A stretch of DNA of 61,116 bases from Alphaproteobacteria bacterium. GTDB taxonomy: Bacteria > Pseudomonadota > Alphaproteobacteria > Sphingomonadales > Sphingomonadaceae. Both the position numbers and the translations under genes were made by a program. Positions 8,018 through 12,764 of the stretch are shown here, piece by piece (within the stretch, counting starts at the first letter, position 1; each line of letters opens with the position of its first letter). Below the pieces are notes generated by a model, which saw nothing but the letters and a program-made list of their open reading frames with translations, did no database searches and was not told the DNA's origin. The stretch covers positions 1-61,116 of the forward strand of contig JAFAZW010000048.1 of the NCBI GenBank assembly GCA_019239415.1. The letters are read 5' to 3'.

Positions 8018-8187
8018 GTGAAGTCGCTCGGCTCGCTCGCCATCGCCATCCTCGTCGGCATCCTCGTGCTGTGGGTGCTGGTGAAGCTCGTCTTCCTGAC
8101 GTTCAAGCTGATCGGCCTCGCCATCGCCGTCGCCGTCGTCGCCGCCGTGTTCTTCGGCGTGCGCAAGTTGATCGAGGGGCCGCGCTG

Positions 8188-8188
<1 letters not shown>
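8018..8188 (+). CDS. Very hydrophobic 56-residue membrane protein between nuoE and nuoF
   Basis: GTG at 8018 follows a perfect AGGAGG (8005-8010) and gives 56 residues, almost wholly hydrophobic (about residues 5-48) with a basic C-terminal RKLIEGPR. This is one or two membrane helices. Its stop overlaps the nuoF ATG as TGATG. The strong ribosome site and start-stop coupling argue that it is real. Function unknown; perhaps a complex I accessory factor. Confidence 0.65.
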
Positions 8189-9474
<1,286 letters not shown>

Positions 9475-9478
<4 letters not shown>

Positions 9479-10098
9479 ACAAGGTCATCGCAGCCGCGCT
9501 GTCGCTCGTCGCTTCGGCCGCGATCGCGGCGCCGCCCGCGCGCGAGGCGCCCGTCTGGGGGACGCCGTCGACACCGGAGGATCTCCAGATCCTCCACGAA
9601 TTCTCAGTGTGCGTGGCCGAGCGGCACCCGCGCGAGGCGGAGGCCCTGCTCGCCAGCGATTTCACGACCGAGGAGTATAACGACCAGGCGCGGCGACTGG
9701 CGCAGGAGACCACCAAGTGCATCCCGGTGGGCCGGCTCCGCTTCAACCAGGTGCTGTTCGCGGGCGGCATGGCCGAGGCCCTGCTGCGTCGGGGGCATGG
9801 GCCGCTCGATCTCGCCGCGCGCACGGCCTACGATCCGAAGCGGCCCCCCATCCAGGCGCGGGGCGAGACGGAGATGATGGCGCTGTGCGCCGTCCGCGCC
9901 GCGCCGGCGGCGGTGGAAGCGTTGCTGGCCACCCCGGTGGCGAGCGCACGCGAGACCGAGGTCGAGGCCGCGCTCGGACCGGCCATCGGCGGCTGCCTCA
10001 AGGCGGGAATGACGCTCCGGCTCAACCGGCCGATGCTGCGCGCGGTGCTGGCGCTGGCGGCGCATCGGCTCGCGGCGGACCATGGGGCGGGGCGCTGA
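9475..10098 (+). CDS. Secreted protein with two C-x35-C modules, between nuoF and nuoG
   Basis: A 207-residue protein with a signal peptide (residues 1-19, ending AIA). The mature part holds two copies of a roughly 65-residue helical unit. Each copy has the pattern Cys-x3-4-ARG/ALA-rich-P-x3-E-A-L-L-A then a second Cys exactly 35 residues later, followed by an RLRFN/LRLNRP-type strand and a hydrophobic helix. The first copy starts at [15 protein letters not shown], the second at [15 protein letters not shown]. The ATG overlaps the nuoF stop (ATGA). The next gene encodes a paralogue. No known family is recognised; a periplasmic or lipoprotein-like location with disulfides is inferred. Confidence 0.75.
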
Positions 10099-10101
10099 GG
10101 C

Positions 10102-10755
10102 ATGATCCTGGCAGCCCTCCTCCTTGTGGCCGCGCCCGCACCTGACCGCGACGGCTGGGAGAGCGGTCCCCCGTCCGTCGCCCGACCGGCAGGGTTCGCT
10201 TATGCGGAATGCCTGTGGAGCGCCAACAAGCGGGCGATCCGCGCCGCCCTGGAGCGCCGCGTCGATGGCGGCGAGAACCCGTTCGCGGGCCTCAAGATGC
10301 CGGCCTGCTTCCAGGCGCCGCCCTTCGCGGCGCGCTTCCCCGTCTTCGTCCTGCGCGGCCTGTTCTTCGAACGCCTGTACCACCAGGATTTCGACCGCTC
10401 GCCGCCCGTCGAGTCCTTCGCGGCCGTGGCTCCGGTCGCCTATCCGATTGCCCCGCGCGCCGTGCAGACCGACGTCGCCAGGAATTACCGCGGCCTCGTC
10501 AGGATCGGGGACTGCGCCGTCCGCCGCGCGCCCGCGGCGGCGCGGGCCTTGCTGTCCACGCGCATTGCAACCGGCGGCGAAGCGAAGGCGATCGCGGCCA
10601 TGGAGCCGCATTTCGTCGCGTGCCAGGCGCCGCTTACGCCGGTTCCGTTCAGCGCCGAGATGATGCGCGGCACCGTCGCGGAGTCGCTGTATCGGCTCAG
10701 CACAGCCGCGGCGCCCGGGCGCGGCGTTGGGCTCGCCGGACGAGGTGACGAATAA
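10102..10755 (+). CDS. Secreted paralogue of the C-x35-C protein, upstream of nuoG
   Basis: A 217-residue protein starting three bases after the previous gene and overlapping the nuoG ATG by one base. A short hydrophobic N-terminus (MILAALLLVAAPAP) looks like a signal sequence. The second half contains DCAVRRAPAAARALLST and then a Cys 35 residues on, nearly the same as the second unit of its neighbour. The first half has a more diverged copy (AECLWSANKRAIRAAL, cysteines 31 apart). Both halves end in an FxxxxxRG...E.LY motif. The family is not recognised. Retention in tandem inside the complex I operon suggests a linked function. Confidence 0.75.
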   Translation: MILAALLLVAAPAPDRDGWESGPPSVARPAGFAYAECLWSANKRAIRAALERRVDGGENPFAGLKMPACFQAPPFAARFPVFVLRGLFFERLYHQDFDRSPPVESFAAVAPVAYPIAPRAVQTDVARNYRGLVRIGDCAVRRAPAAARALLSTRIATGGEAKAIAAMEPHFVACQAPLTPVPFSAEMMRGTVAESLYRLSTAAAPGRGVGLAGRGDE

Positions 10756-12764
10756 TGCCCAAGGTCAAAGTCGACGGCGTCGAGCTGGACGTGCCGCAGG
10801 GCGCCACGGTCCTCCAGGCCTGCGAGCTGGCGGGGAAGGAGATTCCGCGCTTCTGCTACCACGAGCGGCTGACGATCGCCGGCAATTGCCGGATGTGCCT
10901 GGTCGAGGTGAAGCCGGGGCCGCCCAAGCCGCAGGCCTCCTGCGCGCTGCCCGTTGCGGAAGGGCAGGAGATCTTCACCACCACCGAGACGGTGAAGAAG
11001 GCGCGCGAGGGGGTGATGGAGTTCCTCCTGATCAACCACCCGCTCGACTGCCCGATCTGCGACCAGGGCGGCGAGTGCGACCTTCAGGACCAGGCGATCG
11101 CCTATGGCCGCGGCCACTCCCGCTTCCACGAGAACAAGCGCGCGGTGACCGAGAAATATATGGGGCCGGTGGTCAAGACGATCATGACCCGGTGCATCCA
11201 GTGCACGCGCTGCGTCCGCTTCGCCGAGGAAGTGGCCGGCGTCGAAGAGATCGGGATGATCAACCGCGGCGAGAATGCGGAGATCACCTCCTACCTCGAA
11301 GGCGCGGTGACGTCGGAGCTTTCGGGCAACGTCGTCGACCTCTGCCCGGTCGGTGCGCTCGTCTCCAAGCCCTACAGCTTCGAGGCGCGGCCCTGGGAGT
11401 TGCGCAAGGTTCCCGGGATCGACGTGATGGACGCGGTCGGCACCAATATCCGCATCGACCATCGCTTCCGCGAAGTGATGCGGGTGCTTCCGCGGATCAA
11501 CGACGACGTCAACGAGGAATGGGCGCACGACAAGACCCGCCACGCCGTCGACGGGCTGTTGCGCAACCGCCTCGACCGGCCGTGGGTGCGGCGCGAAGGC
11601 ACGCTGCAGCCGGCGAGCTGGGAGGAGGCGTTCGCGGCGATCGCCGGGCGCCTCCGGGGAGCGGCGGGAGATGAGATCGCCGCGCTGGCGGGCGACCTGC
11701 AGGACCTGGAATCGCTCTACGCCGCCAAGGCGCTGCTGAACGGCCTCGGCTCCAGCCTGCTCGAGGCGCGGGTGGACGGCGCGACCTACGACGTCTCGCA
11801 CCCGCGGGCCTACCGCTTCAACGCGACGATTGCCGGCATCGAGACGGCGCCGGCGGTGCTGCTGGTCGGGACCAACCCGCGCTGGGAAGCGCCGCTCGTC
11901 AACACGCGGCTGCGCAAGGTGGTGAAGGCGGGCGGGCGCATCTTCCGCATCGGTCCCCCGGTCGACCTCACCTATCCGGTGACCGAGCTGGGAGCCGACC
12001 TCTCCATTCTCGCCGATCTTCCCCAGGACGTACGCGACGCCTTCGACGGCAAGGAGGATGCGGCCGTCATCGTCGGCATGGGCGCGCTGCAGCTGGCCGG
12101 CGCCTATCCGGCGGCGCGCGCGGCGGCCGCGGCGCTCGGCGCCACCTTCAACCTCCTCCACACCGCCGCGAGCCGGGTCGGCGCGCTCGACCTCGGCTTC
12201 TCGACCGACGGCGGTATCGAGGCGATCCGCGCCCGCGCCGGCAGCCTCAAGGCCTTGTTCCTGCTCGGCGTCGACGAGATCGACACGTCGGCCTTCGCCG
12301 ACACGTTCACCGTCTATGTCGGCACCCACGGCGACCGCGGCGTGCGCCACGCCGACGTCATTCTTCCGGCCGCGGCCTATACCGAGAAGCACGGCACCTA
12401 TGTGAACATGGAAGGCCGGGTGCAGGCTTCCGAGCTCGCCGTCCACCCGCCGGGCGAGGCGCGCGAGGACTGGACGATCTTCCGCGCCCTTTCCGACGTG
12501 GTCGGCAAGCCGCTGCCGTTCGACGATCTGGCGCAGGTTCGCGCGGCGCTGGCCGCGGACCATCCGCACCTCGCTGCGCTCGGGCTGGCCGAGCTCGACC
12601 CGCTCCCCGCCTTCAAGGGCAAGGCGCCGAAGGCGAAGGGCGAGATCGTCTACCCGATCGGGGATTTCTACCTGACCAACCCGATCGCCCGCTCCTCGCC
12701 GACGCTGCAGCGCTGCTCCGCCGAGATCCTCCACGGCCGAACCTTCCAGGAGGCCGCGGAATGA
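10755..12764 (+). CDS. nuoG: NADH-quinone oxidoreductase subunit G
   Basis: A 669-residue 75 kDa-family subunit carrying the electron wire of the peripheral arm. The N-terminal ferredoxin domain binds 2Fe-2S (FCYHERL, CRMCLVEV, ASCALPV). Next are the His-Cys3 cluster site HPLDCPICDQGGECDLQDQ and the 4Fe-4S site CIQCTRCVRF with a distal LCPVGAL. The remainder (about 225-669) is a molybdopterin-oxidoreductase-like domain without cofactor. The start overlaps the upstream gene. Length is typical for alphaproteobacteria. Confidence 0.95.
   Translation: MPKVKVDGVELDVPQGATVLQACELAGKEIPRFCYHERLTIAGNCRMCLVEVKPGPPKPQASCALPVAEGQEIFTTTETVKKAREGVMEFLLINHPLDCPICDQGGECDLQDQAIAYGRGHSRFHENKRAVTEKYMGPVVKTIMTRCIQCTRCVRFAEEVAGVEEIGMINRGENAEITSYLEGAVTSELSGNVVDLCPVGALVSKPYSFEARPWELRKVPGIDVMDAVGTNIRIDHRFREVMRVLPRINDDVNEEWAHDKTRHAVDGLLRNRLDRPWVRREGTLQPASWEEAFAAIAGRLRGAAGDEIAALAGDLQDLESLYAAKALLNGLGSSLLEARVDGATYDVSHPRAYRFNATIAGIETAPAVLLVGTNPRWEAPLVNTRLRKVVKAGGRIFRIGPPVDLTYPVTELGADLSILADLPQDVRDAFDGKEDAAVIVGMGALQLAGAYPAARAAAAALGATFNLLHTAASRVGALDLGFSTDGGIEAIRARAGSLKALFLLGVDEIDTSAFADTFTVYVGTHGDRGVRHADVILPAAAYTEKHGTYVNMEGRVQASELAVHPPGEAREDWTIFRALSDVVGKPLPFDDLAQVRAALAADHPHLAALGLAELDPLPAFKGKAPKAKGEIVYPIGDFYLTNPIARSSPTLQRCSAEILHGRTFQEAAE

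What the first reader, a model, noticed from the sequence alone, without database searches (positions are those of the whole stretch)
9475..10755. Twin secreted proteins built from a two-cysteine C-x35-C module, embedded between nuoF and nuoG
The two genes at 9475-10098 and 10102-10755 encode secreted paralogues. Each contains two copies of a ~65-residue unit with two cysteines. By direct count the spacing between cysteines is exactly 35 residues in three of four units and 31 in the most diverged one. Units share Cys-x-VxxxPxxAxALL at the front and a (F/L)xxx(M/L)RxxLxxxLx helix at the end. Both genes are start-stop coupled to nuoF and nuoG, so they are made with complex I. I know no family with this layout. 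A periplasmic or membrane-surface factor for complex I assembly or stability, perhaps with disulfide-bonded helical repeats, is inference.
Basis: partly seen in the sequence, partly recalled or inferred. Interest (0 to 1): 0.72.

Follow-up and report, generated by a model that had tools for sequence, protein, structure and literature searches.

The report
Four-cysteine secreted proteins in nuo operon
Two neighbouring genes wedged into the respiratory complex I operon of a sphingomonad belong to an unnamed family of small, probably exported helical proteins with four almost always conserved cysteines, and many related bacteria carry one to four such genes at the same spot, which hints at an unrecognised helper on the outer face of complex I but does not prove it.

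Summary
P0001 (9475-10098) and P0002 (10102-10755) are exported-looking, two-unit, four-cysteine paralogues, start-stop coupled to nuoF and nuoG. They belong to a family without a credible match in Pfam, NCBIfam, PHROGs, PADLOC or PDB, found in 111 of 249 genomes of the window's family, 56 of 91 genera; all 3 matching genomes of a 241-genome class sample are in that family. Of 150 listed profile matches, 117 lie at nuoF/nuoG, 11 elsewhere, 22 lack a listed anchor. All four cysteines occur in 181 of 188 aligned segments, with one substitution. Both models are all-helical (pLDDT 90.6, 82.6), without PDB fold match. In two genomes the family sits between nuoG and nuoH instead. Against a complex I role: patchy presence, about 22% identity, 13 of 162 members away from nuo, unrelated genes at the same junction. 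Cysteine distances could not be measured. Most likely: a periplasmic, disulfide-stapled accessory or assembly factor of complex I (0.45); close rival: an envelope guest gene riding nuo expression (0.38).

The parts
8188..9478 (+). nuoF, in two reading frames (frame change between about 8520 and 8570); its stop overlaps the start of P0001
   Evidence: translations, start; C-terminal part matches PF10589 and SLBB_2
9475..10098 (+). P0001, 207 aa, signal-peptide-like N-terminus, two units, Cys 46/82 and 138/174
   Evidence: family members; AF2 pLDDT 90.6
9610..9720 (+). P0001 unit 1 cysteine span (C46 to C82, 35 residues between)
   Evidence: unit profile
9886..9996 (+). P0001 unit 2 cysteine span (C138 to C174, 35 residues between)
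   Evidence: second-unit spacing is 35 in 156 and 36 in 4 of 160 segments
10102..10755 (+). P0002, 217 aa, signal-peptide-like N-terminus, two units, Cys 37/69 and 138/174
   Evidence: AF2 pLDDT 82.6; first unit diverged
10210..10308 (+). P0002 unit 1 cysteine span (C37 to C69, 31 residues between)
10513..10623 (+). P0002 unit 2 cysteine span (C138 to C174, 35 residues between)
10755..12764 (+). nuoG; start codon overlaps the P0002 stop (TAATG)
   Evidence: Pfam Molybdopterin, Fer4_Nqo3, NADH_dhqG_C

Best explanation
P0001 and P0002 are two members of a protein family of sphingomonads: exported, two-unit, all-helical proteins. In each unit two near-invariant cysteines probably form a disulfide that staples helices A and C (inferred). 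The genes are probably transcribed with nuo and are arranged for translational coupling to it (overlapping codons are shown; RNA is not). After export they most likely bind the periplasmic face of the complex I membrane arm, or its assembly intermediates, and stabilise or protect it (inferred). Copies turn over by birth and death, so different species use different, partly redundant members.
For: Position: 117 of 128 anchored matches (of 150 listed) lie within 4.5 kb of nuoF/nuoG after a position-blind whole-genome search; 143 of 162 collected members lie between nuoF and nuoG, all on the nuo strand, and in 68 of 97 loci the last stop overlaps or lies within 20 nt of the nuoG start. In two genomes of one genus the family sits between nuoG and nuoH, its last stop overlapping the nuoH start, so it stays in nuo while the junction changes. 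Cysteines: all four in 181 of 188 segments, one substitution, six gapped or partial; 158 of 160 segments have exactly four Cys from just before C1 onward; a natural one-unit, exported-looking member has just one pair. Helical models. Real genes: dN/dS 0.05-0.24 in the 10 close pairs that I chose. Precedent: mitochondrial complex I carries disulfide-stapled helical CX9C subunits on the equivalent face (PMC8762328, passages).
Against: Patchy: 138 of 249 genomes show no match, and 16 of 43 named Sphingomonadales-type loci have at most 60 nt between nuoF and nuoG. 13 of 162 members lie away from nuo on the stretch read, with no common neighbour in the gene lists of 15 loci and the 10 neighbours scanned. 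Family identity averages 22% whatever the nuoF identity (Spearman -0.04, 1653 pairs), unlike a tightly fitted subunit. The junction also carries unrelated genes. One member has Tyr at Cys1, and one ORF as called lacks a signal-like start (L068). Cys distances were not measured. The Paracoccus complex I structure paper names no such exported extra subunit (PMC11522691, abstract and passages); whether that bacterium has this family was not tested.
Confidence: 0.45

Rival explanations
1. Operon guest: an exported envelope protein unrelated to complex I whose genes ride nuo expression at a junction that tolerates insertions.
For: In the named Sphingomonadales-type loci nuoF-nuoG is the insertion-prone junction: more than 500 nt in 17 of 43, against 0 of 40 for nuoE-nuoF and 0 of 47 for nuoG-nuoH. 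Other occupants are unrelated: aspartyl-protease-like and DUF2158-like proteins (both below Pfam's cut-off), small membrane proteins, other exported-looking proteins. 13 of 162 members live away from nuo.
Against: The family fills 15 of the 27 named Sphingomonadales-type junctions with more than 60 nt, keeps to nuo in two genomes where the junction differs, and some unrelated occupants of the same junction are also exported-looking cysteine proteins (by eye).
Confidence: 0.38
2. A diversifying recognition repertoire in the periplasm (immunity, inhibitor or scavenger proteins), kept as a varying set of old paralogues at one locus.
For: One to four copies per locus; for 72 of 79 members of multi-copy loci the nearest relative is in another locus, so paralogues are old and differentially kept.
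Against: The close pairs computed are under purifying selection; no PADLOC or PHROGs match in 37 members; no match to P0001 in plasmid or phage records; no defence, toxin or mobile-element family among the 10 neighbours scanned.
Confidence: 0.1

Closest known systems
CX9C (CHCH) accessory subunits of mitochondrial complex I: NDUFA8, NDUFS5, NDUFB7, NDUFB10
   Same: Small helical proteins with disulfide-stapled helix pairs on the outer (IMS) face of complex I; NDUFA8 has two stapled units (PMC8762328, passages). A works-like comparison only.
   Different: CX9C spacing against 31-42 and 35-36 residues between the Cys here; no Pfam match; imported by the MIA pathway, not by a signal peptide.
DUF5333 (PF17267) at the same nuoF-nuoG junction in family f18
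   Same: Exported-looking, one invariant Cys pair; beside nuoG in 26 of 26 loci examined, with nuoF also on the fetched piece in 18 of 26.
   Different: One unit with 65 residues between the Cys; profile-profile probability 0.3% with this family, so no detectable homology.
Helicobacter cysteine-rich proteins / Sel1-like repeats (recalled)
   Same: Exported helical repeats with a disulfide per repeat (recalled, from no call).
   Different: No Sel1 hit in 37 of 37 members scanned; no PDB fold match at E <= 0.001.

Membership tests
CHCH / twin CX9C complex I subunits | Two CX9C motifs | tested here: not met
   31-42 and 35-36 residues between the Cys in 160 segments
CHCH / twin CX9C complex I subunits | Sequence match to a Pfam model of the family | tested here: not met
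   0 Pfam families at E <= 0.01 for 37 of 37 members
CHCH / twin CX9C complex I subunits | Bound to the outer face of complex I | not testable with these tools
   needs co-purification or a structure of the complex
DUF5333 (PF17267) | Match to the Pfam model | tested here: not met
   own genome has no match; 37 of 37 members no Pfam match
DUF5333 (PF17267) | Profile-profile homology | tested here: not met
   hhalign probability 0.3%
DUF5333 (PF17267) | Location between nuoF and nuoG | tested here: met
   shared position only
Sel1-like repeat / Hcp proteins | Sel1 repeats | tested here: not met
   fold searches
The unnamed four-cysteine family described here | Two units, two Cys pairs, exported-looking start, profile match | tested here: met
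   P0001 and P0002 score 219.0 and 139.5 bits with the iterated profile, of which they are themselves members; Cys

The most novel reading that the evidence does not exclude
Sphingomonads evolved their own periplasmic, disulfide-stapled helical subunits of complex I, convergent with the CX9C subunits under mitochondrial complex I, encoded inside the nuo operon and renewed by birth and death; unrelated exported Cys proteins at the same junction in other alphaproteobacteria would be further inventions of the same kind.
Probability: 0.25. Interest if true: 0.78.

Novelty: new variant of a known kind. Interest (0 to 1): 0.52.

Why it matters
Bacterial complex I is usually described as 14 core subunits plus few extras (recalled; the Paracoccus paper adds four, none of them described there as exported). 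If this family sits on the periplasmic face, it gives a bacterial, genetically simple counterpart to the mitochondrial outer-face subunits. Even if it does not, it marks an unnamed, widespread sphingomonad protein family and a nuo junction that repeatedly collects genes.

Tried and rejected
Known families: none in Pfam, PADLOC or PHROGs for 37 of 37 members; in NCBIfam one member had one hit (RlmH, E 0.0012), taken as chance. PDB by sequence: best E 1.1. Folds: no PDB match at E <= 0.001 for either model, none in BFVD for P0001.

Chance ORFs rejected: dN/dS 0.05-0.24 in 10 pairs that I chose among near relatives of 76-100% identity, and four conserved Cys against a median column identity of 27%.

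Recent local duplication rejected as the general origin: 7 of 79 multi-copy members have their nearest relative in the same locus. Homology with DUF5333 rejected. Common neighbours of dispersed copies: none seen in the gene lists of 15 loci or the 10 neighbours scanned.

Named genomes with P0001 as query: nothing; with A1: no stretch conserved enough to search with. Literature: (nuoF/nuoG or nuo operon with Sphingomonas, Sphingobium or Alphaproteobacteria, sphingomonad complex I, DUF5333) listed no paper that I recognised as describing this family; one search listed no paper with DUF5333 among its five.

The nuoF and nuoG listings were capped at 150 rows each. Of the 107 genomes, 16 were not fetched, and the 162 members come mostly from pieces fetched because they held matches. 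The 80 named loci are the best of 589 by similarity to this nuoG. Some named loci are the same genomes as G handles (L208 has the contig length of G160, L227 that of G220), so the 188 segments are not all independent; L080 (one gene) and L247 each count as two partial segments.

Full report
WHAT IS THERE. The two genes are placed as described. P0001 (9475-10098, 207 aa) and P0002 (10102-10755, 217 aa) begin with a hydrophobic, signal-peptide-like stretch. P0001 overlaps the nuoF stop (ATGA), 3 nt separate the two genes, and the P0002 stop overlaps the nuoG start (TAATG). Spacing between the cysteines of the four units is 35, 35, 31, 35. No Pfam family reaches E 1 for either protein.

A FAMILY. 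Single-sequence searches found relatives in 13 of 26 (P0002) and 15 of 26 (P0001) genomes of the genus, the window's own included. A profile iterated on the fetched contexts collected 38 ORFs; 37 of these, a fragment left out, form alignment A1. A1 matched 111 of 249 genomes of the family, 56 of 91 genera. In an order sample it matched 46 of 147 genomes, each of the 46 in the same family. In a class sample it matched 3 of 241, the window's genome and two others of its family. Named nuoG loci show the family in records titled Sphingomonas, Sphingobium, Novosphingobium, Aurantiacibacter and Erythrobacter; the nearest named locus is Sphingomonas deserti (83% nuoG identity).

CYSTEINES AND REPEAT. 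In 162 ORFs from 123 pieces, 160 of 164 aligned segments carry all four Cys and none has a substitution; the other four have gaps. With named loci and two further genomes it is 181 of 188, one substitution (Tyr at Cys1 in L286) and six gapped or partial segments. The second pair has 35 residues between in 156 and 36 in 4 of 160; the first pair 31 to 42. 158 of 160 segments have exactly four Cys from just before C1 to the stop (for the fusion L130, to the end of each match); L151 has five, and L150 has four more in a C-terminal extension. L130 is two members fused in one frame. Median identity of the 179 well-filled columns is 27%; after the four Cys the best are a Glu at 94% and an Arg at 90%. 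The two units are homologous. L088 holds a natural one-unit, exported-looking member of 142 residues with a single Cys pair, which favours pairing within a unit. Pairing itself is inferred.

STRUCTURE. AlphaFold2 with A1 gives an all-helical P0001 (mean pLDDT 90.6, pTM 0.85). Each unit has four helices; the first Cys lies four residues before the end of helix A in both units, the second lies at the end of helix C (unit 2) or four residues after it (unit 1). P0002 scores 82.6 and lacks helix C in unit 1. Neither model has a PDB match at E <= 0.001, nor has P0001 one in BFVD. Atomic distances were not available.

POSITION. Of the 150 A1 matches listed, 117 lie within 4.5 kb of nuoF or nuoG, 11 lie elsewhere, and 22 are in genomes whose nuoF and nuoG rows were not listed. 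In the 91 genomes with both anchors listed on one contig, a listed family match lies at the junction in 0 of 50 with gaps up to 500 nt and in 35 of 41 with larger gaps; two of the other six proved to hold members on reading, four did not. Of 162 collected members, 143 lie between nuoF and nuoG on the same strand, in 97 loci (64 with one, 25 with two, 3 with three, 5 with four; one of the threes includes a fragment); 3 have one anchor on the piece; 16 are other. Of these 16, one is at nuoG-nuoH, two are on short pieces (3.0 and 5.5 kb), and 13 lie away from nuo on the stretch read. In 68 of 97 loci the last stop overlaps or lies within 20 nt of the nuoG start.

A SECOND JUNCTION. In genus g64, G088 has one and G242 two members between nuoG and nuoH, the last stop overlapping the nuoH start; the other two sampled genomes of that genus are not among the 111 that matched. 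The nuoF-nuoG gap of these two holds other ORFs, in G242 an exported-looking one.

THE JUNCTION IS A GUEST SITE. A sample chosen by nuoG, not by the family (80 loci), holds 47 loci that I took as Sphingomonadales-type (46 by title, L250 titled only Alphaproteobacteria), 43 of them with nuoF: 16 with gaps up to 60 nt and 27 larger, of which 15 hold the family. Other occupants include an aspartyl-protease-like and a DUF2158-like protein (both below Pfam's cut-off), small membrane proteins and other exported-looking Cys proteins. Gaps above 500 nt occur in 17 of 43 nuoF-nuoG, 0 of 40 nuoE-nuoF and 0 of 47 nuoG-nuoH junctions of these loci. In the other 33 alphaproteobacterial loci nuoF-nuoG exceeds 500 nt in 5 of 32. 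It is not detectably related.

EVOLUTION. Among 58 single-copy loci, family identity averages 22-23% for nuoF identities from 75 to 95% and 38% in the 5 pairs above that; overall it is uncorrelated (Spearman -0.04). In multi-copy loci 72 of 79 members have their nearest relative in another locus. Ten close pairs show dN/dS 0.05-0.24, against 0.013-0.074 for nuoF and nuoG of four of the locus pairs. This reads as old paralogues under purifying selection with birth, death and differential retention.

READING. The repeat, near-invariant Cys, family and operon position are shown. Export, one transcript, disulfides and periplasmic location are inferred. A role at the outer face of complex I is the most likely single reading (0.45), because the family keeps to nuo even where the junction differs and because the equivalent mitochondrial face carries disulfide-stapled helical subunits (PMC8762328, passages). 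The guest reading (0.38) is nearly as good, because the junction takes unrelated genes and many sphingomonads lack the family. The Paracoccus structure paper (PMC11522691; abstract and passages) reports NDUFS4, NDUFS6, NDUFA12 and a methyltransferase as extras; this neither supports nor excludes the reading for sphingomonads.

LITERATURE. Ten searches were made. None listed a paper that I recognised as describing this family; most subscription papers are not held. Passages were seen from PMC11522691, PMC8115037, PMC9696053, PMC4013037 and PMC8762328; the rest were seen as listings only.

Noticed in passing
window 8188-9478: nuoF is split over two reading frames, the change lying between about 8520 and 8570; an assembly error in this 103-contig draft and a real lesion cannot be told apart here.
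   Followed up: partly
window 8018-8188: Small hydrophobic ORF (GTG start, 56 codons) between nuoE and nuoF, its stop overlapping the nuoF start.
   Followed up: no
L080 1095-1802 (G000 contig C37): Third family member in the window's own genome, on another contig, downstream of genes matching GFO_IDH_MocA, KDPG/KHG aldolase and DGOK.
   Followed up: partly
L227 3457-4005 and L286 6594-7151: Another exported-looking Cys-containing protein at nuoF-nuoG, the two ending alike (KCQF..DGS..DA), no Pfam match.
   Followed up: partly
L180 1495-2338, L181 1495-2403: Lipoprotein-like ORF followed by DUF5333 upstream of nuoG in family f18; nuoF lies on the L180 piece, not on the L181 piece.
   Followed up: partly
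L267, L274, L279, L281, L283 nuoF-nuoG gap: Loci titled Phyllobacterium, Rhizobium, Rhizobiaceae, Notoacmeibacter and Aminobacter carry a 199-267 aa protein with a G(I/V)GPK(L/V)E stretch at the same junction; the one scanned (L283) resembles the C-terminal part of a NuoE model in NCBIfam, below its cut-off.
   Followed up: partly
L130 526-2139: Two family members fused in one reading frame (four units).
   Followed up: no
L089 5689-7420: A dispersed member lies 34 nt upstream of a UbiA prenyltransferase gene, same strand.
   Followed up: no
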